This document shows, piece by piece, positions 4,920 through 25,699 of a DNA stretch of 64,000 nucleotides (its first letter is position 1; each line of letters opens with the position of its first letter). The translations under genes and the position numbers were made by a program. The notes under the pieces were generated by a model. The model did no database searches. It saw only the letters and a program-made list of their open reading frames with translations, and was not told where the DNA came from. Source of the DNA: Citrobacter sp. 18056 (GTDB taxonomy: Bacteria > Pseudomonadota > Gammaproteobacteria > Enterobacterales > Enterobacteriaceae); contig CACSJR010000005.1 of NCBI GenBank assembly GCA_902706235.1, forward strand, positions 62,001-126,000, written 5' to 3'.

Positions 4920-5534
4920 ATGAGTGCAATCGAGCCTGGAATGGTCTTCCTTGCCTATCTTTGCGGCTCAATTTCCAGCGCCATTCTGGTCTGCCGCATC
5001 GCGGGTCTGCCTGACCCACGCGTAAGCGGTTCCGGTAATCCCGGAGCGACCAACGTTTTACGAATTGGCGGCAAGGGAGCAGCCGTAGCAGTACTGATCT
5101 TCGACATCCTCAAAGGCATGTTGCCGACCTGGGGTGCCTGGGCGTTGGGTTTCACCCCATTCTGGCTCGGCCTCGTCGCCATTGCAGCGTGCCTCGGCCA
5201 CATTTGGCCCATCTTCTTCGGATTCCGCGGCGGGAAAGGCGTGGCCACGGCTTTCGGTGCGATTGCGCCCATCGGCTGGGATCTCACCGGCGTGATGGCG
5301 GGCACCTGGCTGCTGACTATTTTGCTGAGCGGCTATTCGTCGCTGGGCGCTATCGTCAGCGCACTGGTGGCCCCGTTCTACGTGTGGTGGTTTATGCCAC
5401 AGTACACCTTCCCGGTTTCTATGCTCTCGTGCCTGATCCTGCTACGCCATCATGACAACATCCAGCGTTTATGGCGTCGTCAGGAAACCAAAATCTGGGC
5501 GCGCCTGAAGCGAAAGAATAAACCGCAGAATTAG
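4920..5534 (+). CDS. plsY: Glycerol-3-phosphate acyltransferase PlsY (YgiH)
   Basis: PlsY is the membrane enzyme that transfers acyl groups from acyl-phosphate to glycerol-3-phosphate, the first step of phospholipid synthesis. I used the ATG at 4920 ([17 protein letters not shown]), which gives 204 residues, near the E. coli length. The three conserved motifs are seen: [11 protein letters not shown] (about residues 36-46), [18 protein letters not shown] (about 96-113) and the C-terminal RHHDNI. Five or so membrane helices are evident. In E. coli the next genes are ttdRABT; here they are replaced by the urease operon. Confidence 0.96.
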
Positions 5535-16796: not shown

Positions 16797-16872
16797 GGCC
16801 CCTTAGCTCAGTGGTTAGAGCAGGCGACTCATAATCGCTTGGTCGTTGGTTCAAACCCAACAGGGGCCACCA
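16797..16872 (+). tRNA. ileX: tRNA-Ile (anticodon CAU, lysidine type)
   Basis: The 76-base cloverleaf begins GGCCCCTTAGCTC and ends CAGGGGCCACCA with encoded CCA. The anticodon CAT is at 16830-16832 in loop CTCATAA between GCGA and TCGC; the T arm is GTTGG-TTCAAAC-CCAAC. The sequence and its place after mug identify the AUA-reading isoleucine tRNA, whose C34 is converted to lysidine by TilS, and not a methionine tRNA. In E. coli yqjH follows; here a 16-kb accessory block intervenes. Confidence 0.96.
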
Positions 16873-16881
16873 GACAAAACA

Positions 16882-16915
16882 AGGAGTTAGATGAGAAATC
16901 ATCTGACTCCTTTTT
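16882..16915 (+). terminator. Terminator of ileX
   Basis: The stem AGGAGTTAGATGA / TCATCTGACTCCT with loop GAAA is followed by five T residues, 9 bases past the tRNA. Confidence 0.9.
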
Positions 16916-16981
16916 CATTTGATACGAATCGGGTCAGGTAAGGAATTGCCTCCCTGCCCTCTTCATCTCGCTGCCACATCA

Positions 16982-17315
16982 CTAACTGGCGACACAGCCC
17001 AGCTTTAGGTATTTGAGTCGCTCAATGTGCACTACGGGAACTTGTCGTTCATTAGCAACCACGGTCGTCCATAGCACCTTGCACCAGCCTACGACATTCT
17101 GCCTATGCGGTTCGCTCCCAGAACGGGTGGCGCAATCGTGAACGCGCTGCGACCGGCATCACTACCGGAAGTCATTAGCAGGATATCTGGCTGGGCCTGG
17201 CTGAGTACGTCTTTGTTATAGCCAGCTGTTGTGGGCGTTTCTACGCCAATTTCGCCCCATGCCTGGCGACATTACGCCATCATCTTGATTGAAGCCAGAT
17301 CGCGTATCGCCCGTA
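16982..17315 (-). pseudogene. Decayed coding remnant, possibly a periplasmic binding protein
   Basis: The 440 bases between the ileX terminator and the LysR gene contain no intact gene, but the - strand still reads as protein. From about 17315 a frame gives RAIRDLASIKMMA, a stop, then GEIGVETPTTAGYNKDVL and QAQPDILLMTSGSDAG, ending at a stop at 17089-17091. A second frame then gives TTVVANERQVPVVHIERLKY before a stop at 16982. The phrase QPDILLMTSG resembles the substrate-binding proteins of metal or siderophore ABC transporters, but the family assignment is weak. It looks like the decayed edge of an inserted block. Confidence 0.4.
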
Positions 17316-17357
17316 TGGGATAAAAAGCGATCTCAACTTTACTGGCCCGCTCATATT

Positions 17358-18305
17358 TTAAAATCCATCTTGCGGAATCAGCGTATTTTCAGCTTGCCGT
17401 TGAAAACAGTTAATAATAAATTCACGAAGGATCCTGCTTCGCCGGGAGCCCTGTAACGAGGAGGACTGCGCCAGTACAACATCATATTGCCGCTGGACGC
17501 CTTTTATTTCTCTGACGACCAGTTGGCGGCCGGTATAACTTTGCTGCATGGCCGAGGGGTGAAGTAAAACAGAGTAGCCAACGCCCTGGGCGACTAATGA
17601 GCGGACGGTTTCAATATTTTTTATCTTTGGCCCATAGCGTGGTGTTAAACCTAAATCAGAGAATATGCTGGCGGTATTTTTTGCAGAGGGCTCAACGGAA
17701 AATGAGATAAAATTCTCAGTGATTAAATTCGCGAGATCGATTTCCTTTTCCGCAGCGAGTGGATGATCGGCAGATAATAAAACTTTAGGTCGAACGCAAT
17801 ACAGAACATCATATTCCAGGACAGGATTAATATTGTAGGAATACATCACCGCAAGCTCACACTCTCCCGTCTGTAGCAGAGCATCCAGCTCTATACCTGA
17901 TCCCTCTTTCAGTTCGATTTCAGCTTCGGGGTGCTGCTGCATTAATGCTTCGACCAGTCCAGGTAAAACAAAGGGGGCCAGGGTGCTGTAACAACCCAGA
18001 GTGATCTTGCCTGTTAATTGTTGATCACAGCGGCCATTAGCAAGGTTTTGAATGTCTTGTGCGGCTTCCAGCAGTGAACGGCAGTAAATCAACAAATCTT
18101 TGCCGCTATCGGTCAGCGTGATGCCCTGCGCTCGTTTGCGCACAATTAACCGAACATTCAGCTGATCCTCAAGTGTATCAATCGCCTCACTCAGTGCACT
18201 TTGCGAGATCCCGGCTTTACTGGCGGCTTCACTTAAAGAACTGGTTTCAGAAAGGGTAACAAAGTAGTTGATCTGCTTGATGGAGAATCGTGGGTTGTAT
18301 TTCAT
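17358..18305 (-). CDS. LysR-family transcriptional regulator, probable regulator of the P450 operon
   Basis: This 315-residue protein has the LysR layout: an N-terminal winged helix-turn-helix (residues 8-67, INYFVTLSETSSLSEAASKAG followed by ISQSALSEAIDTLEDQL) and a two-lobe effector-binding domain from about residue 95 (GKITLGCYSTLAPFVLPGL). It is transcribed away from the P450 gene with a 120-base shared gap containing a T-N11-A palindrome, the standard arrangement for a LysR activator of its divergent neighbour. I infer that its effector is the P450 substrate or a product; the sequence does not say which compound. Codon use is AT-richer than that of the backbone genes. Confidence 0.9.
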   Translation of the reverse strand: MKYNPRFSIKQINYFVTLSETSSLSEAASKAGISQSALSEAIDTLEDQLNVRLIVRKRAQGITLTDSGKDLLIYCRSLLEAAQDIQNLANGRCDQQLTGKITLGCYSTLAPFVLPGLVEALMQQHPEAEIELKEGSGIELDALLQTGECELAVMYSYNINPVLEYDVLYCVRPKVLLSADHPLAAEKEIDLANLITENFISFSVEPSAKNTASIFSDLGLTPRYGPKIKNIETVRSLVAQGVGYSVLLHPSAMQQSYTGRQLVVREIKGVQRQYDVVLAQSSSLQGSRRSRILREFIINCFQRQAENTLIPQDGF

Positions 18306-18385
18306 CGTAGCCCTTTAGCGGAAAAACCTGACATCAAGCCGGAAATTCACGTTTTACAACTTAATCCCTCTATCGGTACTCTGCC

Positions 18386-18398
18386 TTGCAACCTGCAA
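18386..18398. promoter_or_regulatory. LysR-type (T-N11-A) operator upstream of the P450 gene
   Basis: TTGCAACCTGCAA is an interrupted palindrome (TTGCA-N3-TGCAA) fitting the LysR-regulator T-N11-A consensus. It lies 2 bases before a TATTAT -10-like hexamer at 18401-18406, so it covers the -35 region, and 28 bases before the P450 start. Assignment to the divergent LysR gene is inference from position. Confidence 0.5.
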
Positions 18399-18425
18399 TA
18401 TATTATTGTACGTGGAGGAATATCT

Positions 18426-19604
18426 GTGGATATGTTAGCACGCCCGTTAGGTGAAAACGTTAAACTCAATGAGTTACTCAGCGATCCTTATCCCATTTAT
18501 GCGCGTTTACGTGAAGCAGAGCCAATAAGCTGGGTGCCCGCCGCGCAACGTTATTTAGTGACCCGTTATGACGATATTGTGACGCTAGAACGAGATAAAG
18601 AAAATTTCAAGGCGGATGAAGACGGATCATTAATGAAACGTGTGATGGGTCACACAATGATTCGTAAAGATGGCGCGCAGCACATGCGTGAGAGAATGGC
18701 TTGCGAACCCTCTTTAAAACCACTGGTGATTAAAAATTACTGGCTGCCACAATTTCATCAGATTGTTGCGGAGACGATAGCCGAAATAAAAGAAAAGGAG
18801 TCGGCTGATTTATTTTCTGAATTCGCCTCGCCGGTTGCTTCGCGTGTGCTGGCGGTACTGCTGGGGCTGACGAATGTCGCGGCGGAAAATCTGGCGATAT
18901 GGTCGCAGGCAATGATGGACGGCACCGGAAATTACGCCAACGATCCGCAGGTCTGGCAACGCGCACAGGCGGCATCCCATGCGGTGGATGAGGCCGTCGA
19001 TGCCATCATCCCGTGGCTACGGGCTCACCCTGATCCTTCGTTAATTTCCTCCATGCTGCACGCTGACAACCCGCTCAGCCGGGATGAAATTGTCGCCAAC
19101 GTCAAGGTGATTATCGGCGGTGGTCTGAATGAACCCCGGGATGCGATGCTCACGGCTGTAGTGGGTTTACTGGAAAACCCGGCTCAGCTTGCGGACGTGA
19201 AGGCCAATCCTGAACTGTGGCGCAGCGTATTTGAAGAGACGATCCGTTGGGTTGCACCGATTGGCATGTATCCACGACAGACGATCCGGGAGGTTGAACT
19301 GGGGGGAATGCTGTTACCCGCAGGTGCGAAGCTGGGGGTGGTACTGGCTTCCGGGAACCGCGACGAACGCATATTCACCGTGGCCGACCGTTTTGATATT
19401 CACCGGGAAAAGAAGCCTCACGTTGCCTTTGGTGGCGGAGCGCATTATTGCCTTGGCGCCTGGGCTGCCCGTGCGCTGGTAGGACAGATAGCCCTTCCGG
19501 CGTTGTTCGGGCAATTGCCGCAACTGGCATTTAGCCGCGCGCCGCAGTGGTTCGGCTGGGTCTTCCGTGGGCCGGTGTCGGTCGCAGTAACCTGGAAATT
19601 GTGA
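18426..19604 (+). CDS. Cytochrome P450 monooxygenase with Asn-Glu in place of the acid-alcohol pair
   Basis: This 392-residue soluble P450 starts at a GTG (18426) with GGAGGA six bases before it; an ATG two codons on is too far from that site. The heme loop FGGGAHYCLG gives Cys342 as thiolate ligand, and ExxR is Glu271-Thr-Ile-Arg274. The I-helix reads IIGGGLNEPRDAM (229-241): where P450cam has Gly-Leu-Asp251-Thr252, this enzyme has Gly-Leu-Asn235-Glu236. As I recall it, the guaiacol O-demethylase GcoA (CYP255A) has a Gln-Glu-Pro there and a similar C-terminus (GW-FRGP-S---VTW; here residues 377-390). An aromatic ether or related aromatic substrate is therefore plausible but unproven. It is followed after 8 bases by a ferredoxin, then a reductase, making a complete class I system. 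Confidence 0.93.
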   Translation: MDMLARPLGENVKLNELLSDPYPIYARLREAEPISWVPAAQRYLVTRYDDIVTLERDKENFKADEDGSLMKRVMGHTMIRKDGAQHMRERMACEPSLKPLVIKNYWLPQFHQIVAETIAEIKEKESADLFSEFASPVASRVLAVLLGLTNVAAENLAIWSQAMMDGTGNYANDPQVWQRAQAASHAVDEAVDAIIPWLRAHPDPSLISSMLHADNPLSRDEIVANVKVIIGGGLNEPRDAMLTAVVGLLENPAQLADVKANPELWRSVFEETIRWVAPIGMYPRQTIREVELGGMLLPAGAKLGVVLASGNRDERIFTVADRFDIHREKKPHVAFGGGAHYCLGAWAARALVGQIALPALFGQLPQLAFSRAPQWFGWVFRGPVSVAVTWKL

Positions 19605-19612
19605 GGGATATG

Positions 19613-19933
19613 ATGAATACGATTATCTACAAATTAGCCAGCGGGCAAGAAATGCGCGCCAGTGCCGGGGCAGGCGTTTCCCTGATGCAAGCGGCGATCC
19701 AACACGGCGTTCCTGGGGTTGTCGGGGAATGCGGCGGTTCAGCGAGCTGCGGGACCTGTCACCTGTACATTGAGCAGGGTGGCGATGGCTTTCCCGCCCC
19801 CGATGAAATGGAACTGGGGATGCTGGAGTTCACCGCAGCGGCATTGAAAGCGGAGAGTCGGCTGGGATGTCAGTGCATTCTTCAGGAAGAGATGCCATTG
19901 ATTATCGTTCAGGTACCGGATACGCAGGTGTAA
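19613..19933 (+). CDS. [2Fe-2S] ferredoxin, putidaredoxin type
   Basis: This 106-residue ferredoxin passes electrons from the adjacent FAD reductase to the P450. The cluster ligands are Cys40, Cys46, Cys49 (GECGGSASCGTCH) and Cys86 (RLGCQC), the spacing of the vertebrate/putidaredoxin class. Two ATG codons are adjacent (19610 and 19613); I chose the second because GAGGG lies 5 bases before it. The gene follows the P450 after 8 bases and precedes the reductase after 2 bases. Confidence 0.95.
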   Translation: MNTIIYKLASGQEMRASAGAGVSLMQAAIQHGVPGVVGECGGSASCGTCHLYIEQGGDGFPAPDEMELGMLEFTAAALKAESRLGCQCILQEEMPLIIVQVPDTQV

Positions 19934-19935
19934 CA

Positions 19936-21204
19936 ATGAACAGACAGCACATTATCATCCTCGGCGGTGGTCAGGCTGGGCTACAGGCCGCGCTATCACT
20001 ACGGGAGTTAGGGTTTTCCGGCACGGTAAGCATCATCACCAATGAACCCGGATTACCCTATCAACGACCGCCGCTGTCGAAAGGCTACCTGCTGGGTAAA
20101 ATGCGGGCCGGCGATCTCGCTTTGCGCCCGGCGGATGTTCTGGCGCAGCAGAACATCGCCCTGATAGCCGGTGAAGCCATTTCAATTGACCGACGCGCGA
20201 GGCAGCTAACGCTTGCCGATGGCCAGCGGCTGACCTATGACCGGTTGATTATCGCCACCGGCTCTCGCGGGCGAATGTGCCCGCTTCCTGGGGCTGATTT
20301 GCCGGGGATTTATACCCTTCGCAGCAAGGCCGACGCCGATGCATTGGGCGCCGGGCTTGCATTGCTGGCTCAGGCCGGACATAAAGCCCCGGTGTTGATT
20401 ATGGGCGGCGGCTTTATTGGTCTGGAATTTGCCGCTGTCGCCACCGAATCTGGCTTTGCATGTACCGTTGTTGAGAGAGGGACGAGATTGCTCGAACGGG
20501 CGCTATCGCCGGAAAGTGCGGGTTATCTCCAGCAGTATCACGAGCAACGCGGCGTGCGCTTTCACTTGGCGACACAGGTTGCCGGGTTCTGCGCCGGGGA
20601 GCAGGGTCGGGTAGGCAGCGTGCGGTTGACTGATGGGTCAACGCTTGCGGCTCAGCTGGTACTGGTGGGGATCGGCGGTATTGCTAACGATGAACTTGCG
20701 GCCGCAAGTGGGCTGGCCTGCGATAACGGCATCCGGGTTAACGCCTGTCTGCAAACGTCTGATGACGCCATTTTCGCGATTGGCGACTGTGCGCGAGCGC
20801 CCCATCCTCTGGCGCCAGCAGGACTTCGGCTGGAGAGCGTCGGCAATGCGATTGACCAGGGGCGCCTGGTGGCGGCAAACGTGCTGGGCGAAGGGAAAGT
20901 CTGGCAGGCTACGCCCTGGTTCTGGAGCGATCAAGGGCGCGAAAAAATACAGATGGTCGGCCTGGGGGCCGCCTGTGAACAGTCGGTGATTCGCGGTGAA
21001 GTCGGGCAGGGGCGCTTTTCCGTTTTCTGTTTCCAGAATGAACAACTGCGTGCCGTAGAGAGTATCAATCGTCCCGTGGATCATATGATGGCGCGCAAAT
21101 GGCTGGAGCAGGGTCTTAGCCCAACCCTGGAGCAGCTTGCCGACCCCAACTGGGATCCAAAATCTCTGGGCAAGTCTTCAGCCACACCGCCCGTGCCAGG
21201 ATGA
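19936..21204 (+). CDS. FAD-dependent ferredoxin reductase (putidaredoxin reductase type)
   Basis: This 422-residue NAD(P)H-dependent reductase is the same length as putidaredoxin reductase. It has an N-terminal FAD fold (IIILGGGQAGLQAALSL, residues 5-21), a central pyridine-nucleotide fold (VLIMGGGFIGLEFAAV, about 155-170), the second FAD motif FAIGDCA (about 278-284) and the family C-terminal domain. It starts at 19936, although the frame is open from 19867 inside the ferredoxin gene. It completes the P450 electron chain NAD(P)H-FAD-[2Fe-2S]-heme. Confidence 0.95.
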   Translation: MNRQHIIILGGGQAGLQAALSLRELGFSGTVSIITNEPGLPYQRPPLSKGYLLGKMRAGDLALRPADVLAQQNIALIAGEAISIDRRARQLTLADGQRLTYDRLIIATGSRGRMCPLPGADLPGIYTLRSKADADALGAGLALLAQAGHKAPVLIMGGGFIGLEFAAVATESGFACTVVERGTRLLERALSPESAGYLQQYHEQRGVRFHLATQVAGFCAGEQGRVGSVRLTDGSTLAAQLVLVGIGGIANDELAAASGLACDNGIRVNACLQTSDDAIFAIGDCARAPHPLAPAGLRLESVGNAIDQGRLVAANVLGEGKVWQATPWFWSDQGREKIQMVGLGAACEQSVIRGEVGQGRFSVFCFQNEQLRAVESINRPVDHMMARKWLEQGLSPTLEQLADPNWDPKSLGKSSATPPVPG

Positions 21205-21212
21205 CGCTGCGC

Positions 21213-21252
21213 CGGCAACCAGACGGCCTGAATGCAGGCGGTCTGGTTGCCG
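21213..21252. terminator. Bidirectional hairpin between the P450 operon and mdtP
   Basis: CGGCAACCAGAC at 21213-21224 pairs perfectly with GTCTGGTTGCCG at 21241-21252, and the loop can pair further (GCCTG/CAGGC). It occupies the convergent gap, so it probably stops transcripts from both sides, although neither side has a long T run. Confidence 0.55.
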
Positions 21253-21261
21253 AAGACGCAA

Positions 21262-22698
21262 CTACAGCTTCCCGCCGCCCAGCGCTTTATTCAGCACAAT
21301 ATCTTTGCTGACCAGCTGTCCCTGCATTTCAATCTGCTGGATCTGCGCACTCAACCACTGGCGCTGGGCTTCGTTTGCCATCGCTTCGCTGATAAGTCCA
21401 CGCTGATAGCGGGCTTTCGCATTGTTCATGCCCGCCGCCGCAGAGCTGACTTTCTCATTTTGCAACGTCTGTTCTTCCTGTAAAGACTGAAGAGCCGACC
21501 CCGTCACCACTACGTCTTTCACCGCCGTCAGCACCGCCTGGTTGTATTGCGAAATCAGCATATCACGCTGATGACGGGTCTTATCGAGGTTGGCTTCAAG
21601 CTGCCCACCGGAGAAGATAGGCAAATAAAGGCCAGGAACAATATTGGCCTGCTGGCTTGAGTGATCAAAAAGATCGTCCAGATGCAGAGCGTCAAAGCCA
21701 AAGAACGCTTTGATATCGAACTTCGGATAGAACGCCGCTTTTGCCGCATCTATTTGTTTCATCGAAGATTGTACATACCAGTGTGCCGCCTGGAGGTCCG
21801 GACGACGCGCCAACAATTGATAGTTAAGCGACGACGGTAATTGCGTTTGCGCTACCGGTAACGGCATTGGCGTGATTTCCGCCAGCTCACCGCCGCCAAT
21901 CAATGCGCGCAGCGACTCACGGAACGCCACACGTTGCTGTTTCGCCATAGAGAGCTGTTGCTCAATAGTCAGCAGCATGGCTTTCGCCATTTCAGCATCC
22001 GAATGGGATTCAAGCCCTCGCGCCGCACGCGCTTCGTGGGAATTAAGCACGAATGTTTCGGACTGCTTTAACGCTTCCAGGCGCTGCGTTACCTGGTCAG
22101 TAGTTTGAATGCCGTAATAGAGTTGGGCCACGTCAGCGGAGATCTCTAACTCCACCGCTTTCTCTTCGAGCTTGTGCGCATTTTCCACCCCCATCACGGC
22201 ATCGAGGCGATCGCGATGTTCGCCCCACAGGTCGATATCGAGCGTGGCACCTAAGCCCACGATCCCTTCGGTATACCACGGGCCTGTGGTTCCCAGCCGT
22301 GGCCGGTCTTCCGCAAATGGGCCGAGATAACCATTCGACGACACATGCGCCTCGTTGATTTGCGCCATCGCATTCACTTTCAGCTGGGTGCCGGATTCAA
22401 TCAGCGCCACATCAGAACGTGCCTGAGCAACGCGCGCATGCGCCACGGCTATCGAGGGGGACTGCTTTAAGGCACGGTCGATCAGCGCGTTAAGCTGCGG
22501 ATCGTTGTAGTGTTTCCACCAGGTCGCGTCAGGCCACTGCTGAGAGGTTAATTTGATATCTTTCGGCAGCACGATTTCCTGCTGCGAAATCGGCTTCACG
22601 ATTGACGTGTCGTCTTTCATCGGCGCACAGGCCGCGAGCAGCGCACAGCACAGCAGTGCCAGCGGTTTGACTTTATTGACTCTTTTAAGAGAACGCAT
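21262..22698 (-). CDS. mdtP: Outer-membrane efflux lipoprotein, MdtP-like (TolC/NodT family)
   Basis: This 478-residue protein is the outer-membrane channel of a tripartite exporter. The signal peptide ends at a lipobox LLAACAP, and two OEP repeats follow with the typical RARVAQARSDVALIESG, ARRPDLQAAHWYVQ and QAVLTAVKDVVVTGSALQ segments. It starts 2 bases after the mdtO stop. The mdtN-mdtO-mdtP order and the upstream ytcA-like gene match the E. coli MdtNOP locus, described as exporting puromycin, acriflavine and sulfa-type drugs, but sequence divergence makes it safer to call it MdtP-like. Confidence 0.88.
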   Translation of the reverse strand: MRSLKRVNKVKPLALLCCALLAACAPMKDDTSIVKPISQQEIVLPKDIKLTSQQWPDATWWKHYNDPQLNALIDRALKQSPSIAVAHARVAQARSDVALIESGTQLKVNAMAQINEAHVSSNGYLGPFAEDRPRLGTTGPWYTEGIVGLGATLDIDLWGEHRDRLDAVMGVENAHKLEEKAVELEISADVAQLYYGIQTTDQVTQRLEALKQSETFVLNSHEARAARGLESHSDAEMAKAMLLTIEQQLSMAKQQRVAFRESLRALIGGGELAEITPMPLPVAQTQLPSSLNYQLLARRPDLQAAHWYVQSSMKQIDAAKAAFYPKFDIKAFFGFDALHLDDLFDHSSQQANIVPGLYLPIFSGGQLEANLDKTRHQRDMLISQYNQAVLTAVKDVVVTGSALQSLQEEQTLQNEKVSSAAAGMNNAKARYQRGLISEAMANEAQRQWLSAQIQQIEMQGQLVSKDIVLNKALGGGKL

Positions 22699-22700
22699 GG

Positions 22701-24671
22701 TTATGCCATTCCAGTTGCAGCCTGCCGGGTTCGCAGGCTGAGATTAAGCTGATCGATTTCGTAGAACAGGGTCTGCAAACGCCCTTCATTGACGTTTGTC
22801 ATCGGGGCCGCGTCATCCGACGGCTCGCCCGACGCTGCCAGCGCCGCACAATTTTGCAATAATTCTGCCGCCTGTTGGCGCTCTGCGGCGAAGTCCGTGT
22901 CTCCGTGCTCCGCTCTGAGGTGTTCAAACTGATAGATGATCTCACTGAGATGGCTCAGCACCTGTTGAGCGGCCAGAATATCGCTTTCTGACTGACGATG
23001 GTCTGATGACCAGCCCGGCTCCATCGCCACCCTGGCGGCAATCCCCTGACATCCGGCCAACGAACGACGCAGGGCGATTTCCGTCCCCGCCCCTTCGGCG
23101 TGCGTTTTCACGCGCTGGGCCAAAGCGTTGATTAAGCCGCTGACGCTACTCCAGAACAGTTTGCCTTCACGTTCAGGCCATAAAAAGAGATGGAAACAGG
23201 TTGCTATCAGCACCCCGAGCAAAATACCGATGATCCTGTCGCGTATTTCCACCAGTTCAAAGGTTGGGCCAAAGCTTTCCAGCAGAGCCAGCGCGAAAGT
23301 GAACATCATCTGAATACCGGCGTAGCTGATCTTCTCGGAGCCAGCATAGATCCAGGCGCCAAGGCCAATCACCGGCAGCGACATCGCCAGCAAACCGACC
23401 ACGCTTTCGATATGCGGCATGACCAGAATCACCATCAGCAACGCCGCCAGGCTACCGAGCACCGCGCCAATCACACGCAGCAATCCTCGCTGGGCGGTCG
23501 ATCCCAGGCTCGACTGCGCCACAATGATGCAGCTAAGCATAATGGTATGAATCCCCTGCCAGTCTGCGGCGATATAGATGAGATAGCAGACATAGGTTGA
23601 AAGCAGGGTTTTGAACGCGAAAGTACACCAGCTCTGGTTCATTACCAGCCCATTGCTACGGACTCTTTCTTTCGATTCTGCCTCAGACTCCACCGCGACA
23701 TGTTGGTAGTGCGAAAATGCCGTAACTGATTCCATCATCCGCACCAGCGTTCCCGATGTCGCGCCCTGGAAGACGTCGGTCTCATCGACCGCAAACAGTT
23801 TGTCTTCTGCAATGGCGGCGGAAAATCGCTTGCAGGCTTCGAGCAGTTTCTGCGCCAGCACAATATCAGCCGCATCGGGGTTAAGGGGCAGTTGTTGCAC
23901 CATCAAATATAATCCCGACACCGTACTGATTCGCGCCAGATGCCAGGCTTCATCCTGGCGATAACGCTTATCGCGCATTACCGAAAAGGCCAGCATGTGC
24001 TGGAGCATCAGCGTTTTTTCCTGAATGACCGCCGCCGGTAAAGGCTCAGGTAACGTTTCTCTGTGAATAAAGCGCTCTGTGCGTTCGATAATGTCGGCTA
24101 ATTGCGCCCGCAACGCCCCACGAAGTTGGGCGACCGGCTCCTGAGGAAGAAACAGCAGATTCACAATAAGCGTCAGAATGATGGCGTAATTGATAGCCAC
24201 CCACAGCCACAGAATCAGGCGTACCACGCTGTCTGCCTGATCGGTCAGGTCCGCGAAGGTTTGGGTATAAAAAATAACCAGACCGCTCAGGAAGAAGATA
24301 ACGCCATATTTGGTGGCCCGCATCAGATAGACGCAACCGAAAAACAGCCCGCCCGCCATCATCAGGCGCAGCATGGGATATTCCCAGGTCAGTTTTAAGG
24401 TCAGAATCGACAGCCCTACCGCCAGCGTCGTCCCGAGAAGAAACAAGGTACCGGTCAGTTTTGACAGCACAATATTCTTTTGCGTGACATAAAAAACGGC
24501 TATCAGAGACAGTGCCAGAAAAGGGATCTGTAGCGTCAATGAGATAACCATCACCAGCGAACAGGTTATCAGACAACGCAGCATCAGGTTGCCGCGCCCT
24601 GGATAAGGTCGCAGCAAACTGGCTAACTGTTGCAACCTGTTGGGGGTCGCGGTAATCGTTCGTGAAACCAT
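22701..24671 (-). CDS. mdtO: Inner-membrane FUSC/ArAE-type exporter subunit, MdtO-like
   Basis: This 656-residue protein has two clusters of membrane helices (about residues 30-180 and 355-505) separated by a cytoplasmic domain, the fusaric-acid/aromatic-acid exporter (FUSC) layout also seen in AaeB. Recognisable parts are LRPYPGRGNLMLRCLITCSL at the start and FLWPEREGKLFWSSV after the second cluster. It is one of the mdtNOP-like genes and probably moves amphipathic or aromatic compounds out of the cytoplasm. Confidence 0.87.
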   Translation of the reverse strand: MVSRTITATPNRLQQLASLLRPYPGRGNLMLRCLITCSLVMVISLTLQIPFLALSLIAVFYVTQKNIVLSKLTGTLFLLGTTLAVGLSILTLKLTWEYPMLRLMMAGGLFFGCVYLMRATKYGVIFFLSGLVIFYTQTFADLTDQADSVVRLILWLWVAINYAIILTLIVNLLFLPQEPVAQLRGALRAQLADIIERTERFIHRETLPEPLPAAVIQEKTLMLQHMLAFSVMRDKRYRQDEAWHLARISTVSGLYLMVQQLPLNPDAADIVLAQKLLEACKRFSAAIAEDKLFAVDETDVFQGATSGTLVRMMESVTAFSHYQHVAVESEAESKERVRSNGLVMNQSWCTFAFKTLLSTYVCYLIYIAADWQGIHTIMLSCIIVAQSSLGSTAQRGLLRVIGAVLGSLAALLMVILVMPHIESVVGLLAMSLPVIGLGAWIYAGSEKISYAGIQMMFTFALALLESFGPTFELVEIRDRIIGILLGVLIATCFHLFLWPEREGKLFWSSVSGLINALAQRVKTHAEGAGTEIALRRSLAGCQGIAARVAMEPGWSSDHRQSESDILAAQQVLSHLSEIIYQFEHLRAEHGDTDFAAERQQAAELLQNCAALAASGEPSDDAAPMTNVNEGRLQTLFYEIDQLNLSLRTRQAATGMA

Positions 24672-24682
24672 ACGGCCTCCGC

Positions 24683-25699
24683 TTAGCGAGGTTGCAGCGT
24701 TGCTACCGCAGAGGCGCCGACGCGGAACAGGTGCGGATCAGGATTCGTGACCCGAATTTTGACCGGGAAGCGTTGTGAAACATGCACCCAGTTAATGTTC
24801 CTTTTCACCGACGGTAAGCCTGCAATAATGCTGCCGCCATCGTCTGGCAACACCCCGTAGCTAATGGAATCAACCTGACCGTCAAAGGTTTTGCCGGTGT
24901 CGCTCATCAACCAGACACGTGCCGGTGTGCCTTCCTGAATATTCTTCAGCTCGGTTTCACGGAAATTAGCGATGACATACCAGTGCGTGGTGTCAATCAG
25001 GGTAAATACCGGTTTTCCTGCCGAGACAAATTCACCAATACTGGTTTTCAGAGATGCCACGCGCCCGGTAAACGGCGCACGCACTTCGGTATGTTCGAGA
25101 TTCAGTTTAGCGATATCAATCTGCGCTTCGATTTCTGCTCGTTGCGCCACCAGCGCATCGACACCGCTGACAGCGGCTTCGGCCTGTTTCGCCTGTAATT
25201 GCAGACTTTGCAGACGTGATTGCGCGCTGGCATTCGCCGCACGCGCCTGGTCAACTTCTTCTGCCGAAGCAAAGCCCTGAGAAAGCAGCGGTGCAAGACG
25301 GCGTAAGGTATCAGCGGCTTTTTTCGCATCGGCCTGCGCGCTGGCGATAGAGGCTTTTGCCGATCCAGCACTGAATTTCTGGGCATTGACCGAGCGCTGG
25401 GTCAGCTCAATCTGACGATTCAGTCCTGCAAGTTTCGCCTGTGCCTGCTTCAGCGCGGCTTCGTAAGTGGCGGGATCAATCCGGAATAGGAGGGCATCTT
25501 TTTGCACCAACTGGTTATCACGCACCGGTTGTACAAGGATCCGGCCGCTCACTTCGGGTGATACGGTGATGGTGTCCGCGTAGGCATAGGCATCATCGGT
25601 CCGGGGCCGGGCATCAATGCGCCAGACAACCAGAGCGAGGACAATCAGCGCCGCAACCGTCAGTACAATTAACGTTGTTTTTTGCTTATTTTTAAACAT
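24683..25699 (-). CDS. mdtN: Membrane-fusion (HlyD/EmrA) protein, MdtN-like
   Basis: This 338-residue periplasmic adaptor has one N-terminal membrane helix (residues 8-26, TTLIVLTVAALIVLALVVW), a first lipoyl half-motif (VSGRILVQPVRDNQLVQKG-like), a long coiled-coil hairpin (about 75-185), the second lipoyl half (TEVRAPFTGRVASL) and a C-terminal barrel. It links the MdtO-like pump to the MdtP-like channel. It is 11 bases upstream of mdtO. Confidence 0.9.
   Translation of the reverse strand: MFKNKQKTTLIVLTVAALIVLALVVWRIDARPRTDDAYAYADTITVSPEVSGRILVQPVRDNQLVQKDALLFRIDPATYEAALKQAQAKLAGLNRQIELTQRSVNAQKFSAGSAKASIASAQADAKKAADTLRRLAPLLSQGFASAEEVDQARAANASAQSRLQSLQLQAKQAEAAVSGVDALVAQRAEIEAQIDIAKLNLEHTEVRAPFTGRVASLKTSIGEFVSAGKPVFTLIDTTHWYVIANFRETELKNIQEGTPARVWLMSDTGKTFDGQVDSISYGVLPDDGGSIIAGLPSVKRNINWVHVSQRFPVKIRVTNPDPHLFRVGASAVATLQPR

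What the first reader, a model, noticed from the sequence alone, without database searches (positions are those of the whole stretch)
18426..21204. Complete class I P450 system in an enterobacterium, with an Asn-Glu pair replacing the catalytic Asp-Thr
Seen: P450, [2Fe-2S] ferredoxin and FAD reductase genes in tight succession with intact heme, cluster and flavin motifs. The I-helix reads GGLNEPRD, so the acid-alcohol pair used for oxygen activation in P450cam (Asp251-Thr252) is Asn235-Glu236. Known: GcoA-type guaiacol O-demethylases carry a Gln-Glu there as I recall, and share the C-terminal GW-FRGP motif, but use a single fused reductase (GcoB). Inferred: a GcoA-like aromatic-oxidising P450 served by a putidaredoxin-type chain, a combination I do not know as described; the acid at the Thr position may also permit peroxide-driven chemistry. 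P450s are rare in Enterobacteriaceae.
Basis: partly seen in the sequence, partly recalled or inferred. Interest (0 to 1): 0.82.

Follow-up and report, generated by a model that had tools for sequence, protein, structure and literature searches.

The report
Horizontally acquired P450 demethylase gene cassette
An enterobacterium has acquired a small, self-contained set of genes (a regulator, a cytochrome P450 and its two electron carriers) that probably strips methyl groups from plant-type aromatic acids so that its existing phenylacetate-degradation pathway can use them; the enzyme family is known, but its use with these partners and in this kind of bacterium appears little studied.

Summary
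In detail: 18426-21204 encodes an intact P450, putidaredoxin-type ferredoxin and FAD reductase, with Asn235-Glu236 in the I-helix. But Asn-Glu is a family trait: 79 of 79 homologous loci and PDB 6g71 have it. The P450 is 43.6% identical to 6g71 (recalled as CYP1232A24, an Arthrobacter O-demethylase), only 31-34% to the GcoA group. The three-component chain is common there (48 of 79 loci). In 7 of 7 held genomes of its clade, an HpaD (homoprotocatechuate ring-cleavage) gene lies 0.5-19 kb from the P450, and its own genome has an hpa operon elsewhere. Best reading: an O-demethylase of methoxylated phenylacetates feeding the hpa pathway. Linkage is clade-bound, with exceptions. New member of a known kind; substrate and peroxide chemistry are untested, and no structure model could be made.

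The parts
17358..18305 (-). LysR-type regulator, divergent from the P450; proposed regulator of the cassette
   Evidence: Pfam HTH_1 + LysR_substrate; best match among the loci is the LysR beside the Martelella P450, 45% identity; a LysR gene within 1.2 kb upstream in 67 of 79 homologous loci, 65 of them divergent
18340..18359 (+). CGGAAAT-N4-GTTTTACAA, proposed LysR activation site overlapping the P450 promoter's -35 region; a degenerate CGGAA palindrome (seen by eye) lies about 32 bases upstream
   Evidence: Exact in the window and in the same intergenic region of L003 and L102, near-exact in L006; a looser form of the whole site was found in these 3 of 86 loci examined, the core TTTTACA in 5 of 86. 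In the window 1 exact match and 1 with 3 mismatches; shuffles give 0.39 on average at up to 3 mismatches. Function inferred
18426..19604 (+). Cytochrome P450, N-E-P-R-D family (same family as PDB 6g71); proposed O-demethylase of methoxylated phenylacetates
19128..19133 (+). Codons of Asn235-Glu236 in place of the Asp-Thr acid-alcohol pair
   Evidence: Sequence and alignment
19610..19933 (+). Putidaredoxin-type [2Fe-2S] ferredoxin
19936..21204 (+). FAD-dependent NAD(P)H:ferredoxin reductase, putidaredoxin-reductase type
21213..21252 (.). Inverted repeat between the convergent reductase and mdtP-like genes; possible bidirectional terminator
   Evidence: Self-match on the opposite strand, 90% over 40 bases, (query 5414-5453); sequence; not reported by the terminator scan
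16797..16872 (+). tRNA with CAU anticodon (ileX-like); left edge of the segment that differs from the sister genome
   Evidence: ARAGORN, listed as tRNA-Met; the E. coli counterpart is annotated tRNA-Ile; homology with sister genome G006 stops at 16872
16873..21268 (.). Segment without counterpart in the sister genome G006, which has about 0.83 kb of other sequence in its place

Best explanation
A horizontally acquired catabolic cassette (LysR - P450 - ferredoxin - reductase). NADH or NADPH reduces the FAD reductase, which reduces the [2Fe-2S] ferredoxin, which passes electrons to the P450. The P450 hydroxylates the methoxy carbon of a ring-methoxylated phenylacetate (homovanillate or 3,4-dimethoxyphenylacetate type); the hemiacetal releases formaldehyde and leaves 3,4-dihydroxyphenylacetate (homoprotocatechuate), which the host's hpa operon cleaves and takes to central metabolism. 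The LysR protein, binding the conserved site upstream of the P450, would switch the cassette on when the aromatic acid is present. In oxygen activation Glu236, next to Asn235, would take the proton-delivery role of Asp-Thr. Shown: gene content, motifs, family placement, the inserted segment, linkage to hpa genes in relatives, an hpa operon in the host. Inferred: substrate, regulation, role of Asn-Glu, electron flow.
For: Nearest solved relative 6g71, 43.6% identity; the Arthrobacter enzymes CYP1232A24 and 1232F1 were published as acting in papaverine metabolism (Klenk et al. 2019: title and one citing sentence seen in PMC9687028; that they demethylate 3,4-dimethoxyphenylacetate and homovanillate, and that 6g71 is CYP1232A24, is recalled). 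The sister group includes the aromatic O-demethylases GcoA and relatives (abstract and passages of PMC6021390 and PMC13101465). Martelella, the closest relative by tree, has the cassette inside an hpa cluster: HpaR, HpaE, HpaD, HpaH, HpaI and HpaD_Fe over the NCBIfam cut-offs, HpaG below. In 7 of 7 held genomes of the clade (L002, L003, L004, L005, L007, L008, L014; L006 not held) an HpaD gene lies 0.5-19.2 kb from the P450 on the same contig, 6 of the 7 over the family cut-off; also 16.8 kb on an Agrobacterium plasmid. Own genome: all 8 Hpa proteins tested (G, E, D_Fe, H, I, X, A, B) over cut-offs at C4:264.9-274.6 kb; 2 of 7 genus genomes have HpaD_Fe, and only this one the P450. No gentisate 1,2-dioxygenase match in the own genome. 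0 of 19 control loci of about 17 kb around other enterobacterial P450s carry Hpa-like genes by the same search.
Against: No assay, no substrate-bound structure, no structure model (13 refusals). The hpa operon in the host is on another contig, so it is not shown to be linked to the cassette. Linkage is not a rule of the whole family: within the loci themselves (about 8 kb each side) an HpaD-type gene is seen in only 4 of 79 (L003, L005, L008, L017). Of the 11 relatives in the wider clade, L103 and L105 (Rhodococcus) show no HpaD within 10 kb (L103 has an intradiol dioxygenase and a fumarylacetoacetate-hydrolase-type gene instead), and L006 none within 8 kb. The L008 HpaD match is below the cut-off. 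Outside the clade, L010 and L019 have an HpaD but not within 20 kb, L057 none; L017 (4.0 kb) was picked after its genes had been seen. The 19 controls are from Enterobacteriaceae, not from the relatives' own groups, so they are a weak control. A Rhizobium relative (L104) sits by gentisate dioxygenase, so the family serves several pathways. The window's P450 is on a long branch (0.77).
Confidence: 0.62

Rival explanations
1. O-demethylase of another methoxylated aromatic (benzoate, cinnamate, phenol or alkaloid fragment) that enters a pathway other than hpa.
For: Family members sit beside gentisate dioxygenase (L104) or an intradiol dioxygenase (L103, in the window's wider clade); CYP255 relatives act on guaiacols and syringol.
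Against: HpaD lies near the P450 in 7 of 7 held genomes of the clade; no gentisate 1,2-dioxygenase match in the own genome. Other aromatic pathways of the host were not searched.
Confidence: 0.17
2. A ring hydroxylase of phenylacetate or hydroxyphenylacetates that makes 3,4-dihydroxyphenylacetate directly rather than an O-demethylase.
For: The hpa linkage would fit equally; a self-sufficient P450 for 2-hydroxyphenylacetate has been reported (title seen in a reference list).
Against: The host already has HpaB, the 4-hydroxyphenylacetate 3-hydroxylase (1109 bits), and two relatives have HpaB-like genes nearby (L002; Agrobacterium), so a second such hydroxylase would be redundant; the characterised relatives named here are demethylases.
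Confidence: 0.1
3. A natural peroxygenase: Glu236 allows H2O2 to drive the reaction in the cell, and the electron carriers are secondary.
For: An acid at the Thr position; the related enzyme SyoA is described in a paper title as one of a rare class of heme peroxygenases (reference list).
Against: Ferredoxin and reductase genes are beside the P450 in 48 of 79 homologous loci, and 24 more carry a fused reductase, which would hardly be kept if peroxide sufficed.
Confidence: 0.05
4. A passenger: recently acquired, not expressed or not useful in this host.
For: Found in 1 of 7 genus genomes, 1 of 392 family genomes (other hits at most 30% identical) and 1 of 394 order genomes at E <= 1e-60; the LysR gene and the first half of the P450 gene differ in composition (GC3 0.47 and 0.51 against 0.56-0.67 in six neighbouring genes).
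Against: All four frames and the motifs checked are intact, the operator-like site is conserved and a matching lower pathway is present.
Confidence: 0.06

Closest known systems
PDB 6g71 / CYP1232 family (recalled as CYP1232A24 of Arthrobacter; Klenk et al. 2019, J Biochem 166:51, not held, known here by title and a citing sentence)
   Same: 43.6% identity over 388 residues, N-E-P-R-D I-helix, GWVFRGP C-terminus; inside the same supported family
   Different: 6g71 groups with enzymes fused to an FprA-like reductase and flavodoxin, and the Arthrobacter enzymes are cited with flavodoxin and flavodoxin reductase as partners; the window has a [2Fe-2S] ferredoxin chain and lies in another clade
CYP255A group: GcoA (5ncb), 8u09 (recalled as SyoA), 9ia1 (probably AgcA)
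   Same: Glu at the Thr position, following Pro, GW-FRGP end, aromatic O-demethylation
   Different: 31-34% identity, Gln not Asn before the Glu, G-H not R-D after the Pro, separate branch; GcoA uses the three-domain reductase GcoB (abstract and passage)
P450cam system (CYP101A1 with putidaredoxin and putidaredoxin reductase)
   Same: Same kind of three-component electron chain
   Different: P450 of a different family; its Asp-Thr pair is Asn-Glu here
CYP199A / PbdA, methoxybenzoate O-demethylases
   Same: O-demethylation of lignin-type aromatic acids (abstract and passages of PMC11530827)
   Different: Much lower similarity (E about 1e-29 for CYP199A4)

Membership tests
CYP1232-like family (that of 6g71) | More than 40% identity to a named member (usual P450 naming rule, recalled) | tested here: met
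   43.6% to 6g71; the label CYP1232A24 for 6g71 is recalled
CYP1232-like family (that of 6g71) | Groups with 6g71 apart from CYP255 | tested here: met
   100/100 split; other P450 families were not in these trees and are ruled out only by search scores (next after the CYP255 chains E 2.5e-40)
CYP1232-like family (that of 6g71) | N-E-P-R-D in the I-helix | tested here: met
   Window, 6g71 and 79 of 79 loci; 7 of 7 plasmid copies read
CYP1232-like family (that of 6g71) | O-demethylation of methoxyphenylacetates | not testable with these tools
   Needs an assay; the published activity is recalled, the paper was not held
CYP255A (GcoA) | More than 40% identity | tested here: not met
   31.0, 31.4 and 33.6%
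CYP255A (GcoA) | Gln-Glu pair | tested here: not met
   Asn-Glu
CYP255A (GcoA) | Partner is a fused three-domain reductase (GcoB) | tested here: not met
   Separate ferredoxin and FAD reductase of putidaredoxin-reductase type
Class I (three-component) bacterial P450 system | Adjacent intact P450, [2Fe-2S] ferredoxin and FAD reductase genes | tested here: met
Class I (three-component) bacterial P450 system | Electron transfer between the three proteins | not testable with these tools
   Needs reconstitution
P450cam (CYP101) | Asp-Thr acid-alcohol pair | tested here: not met
   Asn-Glu
P450 peroxygenases | Turnover with H2O2 | not testable with these tools
   Needs an assay

The most novel reading that the evidence does not exclude
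The N-E P450s with a putidaredoxin chain are a widespread, hardly studied route that brings methoxylated phenylacetates into the homoprotocatechuate pathway in alphaproteobacteria, actinobacteria and now an enterobacterium; they activate O2 with a Glu in place of Thr as a conserved rule, and the whole unit, operator included, moves between classes of bacteria as a plug-in for hosts that already have hpa.
Probability: 0.45. Interest if true: 0.55.

Novelty: new member of a known kind. Interest (0 to 1): 0.42.

Why it matters
Aryl-O-demethylation is often a bottleneck in using lignin-derived aromatics (abstract of PMC6021390). A compact cassette that has entered an enterobacterium, would work with a lower pathway that some E. 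coli strains own (recalled), and carries its own regulator is a convenient test bed. The family also offers a natural comparison: one invariant N-E P450 family served by two quite different electron chains (separate ferredoxin and reductase, or a fused FprA-type reductase plus flavodoxin, the latter one clade), and a natural test of how O2 is activated without the Asp-Thr pair.

Tried and rejected
Rejected: N-E as a one-off mutation (79 of 79 relatives have it). CYP255 membership (identity, motif, tree). A prophage or plasmid setting: the flanks are shared with sister genomes; I did not search the segment for an integrase by a family scan, and saw none among the ORFs listed; a scrap that looks HipA-like by eye (not scanned) lies between tRNA and LysR. 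The sigma-70 consensus scan gave 2 promoter-like sites against 2.8 in shuffles, so nothing usable.

Led nowhere: structure prediction, and therefore any fold search or pocket model (not completed). Papers: the term CYP1232 has no hit in the held library (one search listed 20 papers, none with CYP1232A24; none); the Klenk 2019 paper and the SyoA paper PMC11842817 are not held. I found no paper describing a P450 for homovanillate beside hpa genes in three searches (0 papers; 3 papers, passages of one read: 12 of 30 listed by title); that is a statement about this library only.

In one search, 6 of the 21 other-P450 enterobacterial loci were dropped because their ORF was 500 residues or longer; 15 were kept. 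In one search one of the 20 control regions asked for was dropped (only 3.3 kb long). L010, L019 and L057 were chosen as out-of-clade comparison and L017 because hpa-like genes had already been seen; only the 7 clade genomes are an unselected count, and they are related to each other, so the binomial figure printed should not be taken as a probability. The 7 plasmid regions read were taken by hand from the best-listed of 1,230 records; the plasmid gene table is incomplete.
Full report
What is there. The window carries, on the + strand, a P450 (18426-19604), a ferredoxin (19610-19933) and an FAD reductase (19936-21204) in a tight row, and on the - strand a LysR gene (17358-18305) that faces away from the P450 across 120 bases. 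Pfam names all four, and the solved-structure search agrees for the three redox proteins. The motifs checked are intact.

The Asn-Glu pair is a family rule. A scan of 84,980 species genomes, capped at 80 places, gave 79 loci with relatives. In an alignment, 79 of 79 have N-E-P-R-D at this place; PDB 6g71 has it too; GcoA, 8u09 and 9ia1 have Q-E-P-G-H; of 15 other P450s of Enterobacteriaceae in the same alignment (6 more were dropped for length) all 15 have E or D at the first position and 14 have T at the second. More distant relatives in three genomes of one gammaproteobacterial genus read N-E-P-R-D in 4 of 5 copies and Q-E-P-G-H in one.

Family placement. Identity is 43.6% to 6g71, 31.0% to GcoA, 31.4% to 8u09 and 33.6% to 9ia1. 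In a tree of 84 rows the three CYP255-group chains stand apart (100/100) and the window protein joins Martelella (94/79) in a nine-row clade of the window, four alphaproteobacteria and four actinobacteria (99/92); with seven plasmid copies added, window + Martelella + Agrobacterium leguminum are supported at 95/93, in a 12-row clade (95/97). I recall that 6g71 is CYP1232A24 of Arthrobacter and that CYP1232A24 and F1 demethylate 3,4-dimethoxyphenylacetate and homovanillate; the paper (Klenk et al. 2019) is not held, and I saw only its title and a citing sentence, which names flavodoxin and flavodoxin reductase as electron partners there.

Electron partners. Of the 79 loci, 48 have both ferredoxin and reductase beside the P450, 4 ferredoxin only, 1 reductase only, 2 neither by this test, and 24 carry one long ORF in which the P450 is followed by an FprA-like reductase (24 of 24) and a flavodoxin (23 of 24; the other, L040, lies at the end of a short contig) (Pfam was run on one of them). 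The fused form is one clade with 6g71 (100/99). A LysR gene lies within 1.2 kb upstream in 67 of 79, divergent in 65. The 7 plasmid regions that I read have LysR, P450, 2Fe-2S protein and FAD oxidoreductase in a row. So the three-component arrangement is the commonest one.

Substrate class. Martelella, the nearest relative, has the cassette between hpaE-hpaD-hpaG-hpaH-hpaI and a Liv-like transporter (weak LivH match) followed by a second HpaD; HpaR, HpaE, HpaD, HpaH, HpaI and HpaD_Fe pass the NCBIfam cut-offs, HpaG does not. For 12 loci I asked for HpaE and HpaD genome-wide; 11 genomes are held. Of the four outside the clade, L017 has it at 4.0 kb (picked because this was already seen), L010 and L019 have HpaD but not within 20 kb, L057 none. 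On the Agrobacterium plasmid hpaI, hpaH, hpaD and hpaE lie about 13-18 kb away (hpaD at 16.8 kb), with an hpaB-like gene and hpaR further on.

Against this: two Rhodococcus plasmids within the 12-row clade show no HpaD within 10 kb, Bradyrhizobium L006 none within 8 kb, and over the whole family only 4 of 79 loci show an HpaD-type gene within their flanks of about 8 kb. A Rhizobium relative sits by gentisate dioxygenase. In 19 control loci of about 17 kb around other enterobacterial P450s no Hpa-like gene was found with the same search; this control is from another group of bacteria than the relatives, so it is weak. The link is thus a feature of the window's clade, not of the family.

The host. 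The window's genome has HpaG, HpaE, HpaD_Fe, HpaH, HpaI, HpaX, HpaA and HpaB, 8 of 8 tested, all over cut-offs, in one run on another contig; HpaC and HpaF were not looked for. HpaD_Fe is in 2 of 7 genomes of the genus, the P450 in 1 of 7. Gentisate 1,2-dioxygenase gave no match. Product of the proposed reaction and substrate of the operon would be the same compound, 3,4-dihydroxyphenylacetate.

How it got there. Homology with the sister genome G006 (93-98% identical in the flanks) stops at the last base of the CAU tRNA gene (16872) and resumes at 21269; G006 has about 0.83 kb there, G001 about 10 kb. A scrap that looks HipA-like lies at 17028-17323. Close relatives of the P450 are absent from the other 391 family genomes and 393 order genomes sampled (overlapping samples), and the E. 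coli collection gave no match by DNA search. The relatives that the tree puts nearest are alphaproteobacterial. The intergenic element CGGAAAT-N4-GTTTTACAA is exact in the window, Martelella and Agrobacterium and near-exact in Bradyrhizobium; it was not found in the other loci examined. So regulator, operator and enzyme seem to have moved together.

Active site, inferred. The column reported in print as a specificity position (Thr296 of GcoA, Ser300 of SyoA, Ala293 of AgcA; passage of PMC13101465) is Tyr282 here, Tyr in 80 of 81 sequences; Arg42 (79 of 81) and Arg80 (81 of 81) are conserved here and not basic in the three CYP255-group chains. I propose these as candidates for holding the arylacetate; no structure model could be made.

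Verdict. The two features that made it look strange are ordinary for its family. What remains of interest is the mobile four-gene unit, its clade's link to homoprotocatechuate catabolism, and a P450 family with an invariant Asn-Glu and two alternative electron chains.

Noticed in passing
L021, L023, L042, L043, L047 and 19 more loci: 24 actinobacterial relatives are single ORFs of P450 + FprA-like FAD reductase + flavodoxin (flavodoxin seen in 23), one clade that includes 6g71: a self-sufficient layout that I do not recall as a described fusion class (one paper search, two papers, passages of one read).
   Followed up: partly
window 16873-21268; L129 6622-7448 (G006); L132 (G001): The stretch between the CAU tRNA gene and the mdtP-like gene varies in the genus: 4.4 kb here, 0.8 kb in G006, about 10 kb in G001.
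   Followed up: partly
window 17028-17323: Fragment similar to part of a longer gene that looks HipA-like by eye; related copies at G001:C2:2146128 and G000:C1:383316.
   Followed up: partly
window 21262-25699: MdtP/MdtO/MdtN-like efflux operon beside the cassette; the MdtP- and MdtO-like proteins fall short of the NCBIfam cut-offs for those names, MdtN passes.
   Followed up: no
L102 1193-10831; L002 12471-17170: Aminotransferase, aldehyde dehydrogenase and APC permease genes next to the cassette in Agrobacterium (annotated) and, by eye, Mesorhizobium suggest that the arylacetate there may arise from an aromatic amine.
   Followed up: no
L002 15347-16537 (-): A second, more distant P450 near the cassette in Mesorhizobium.
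   Followed up: no
plasmid collection, e.g. CP125156.1 and NZ_CP134663.1: Some records held as plasmids are chromosome-sized (CP125156.1 carries rpoD and mug), so they look like mislabelled chromosomes.
   Followed up: no
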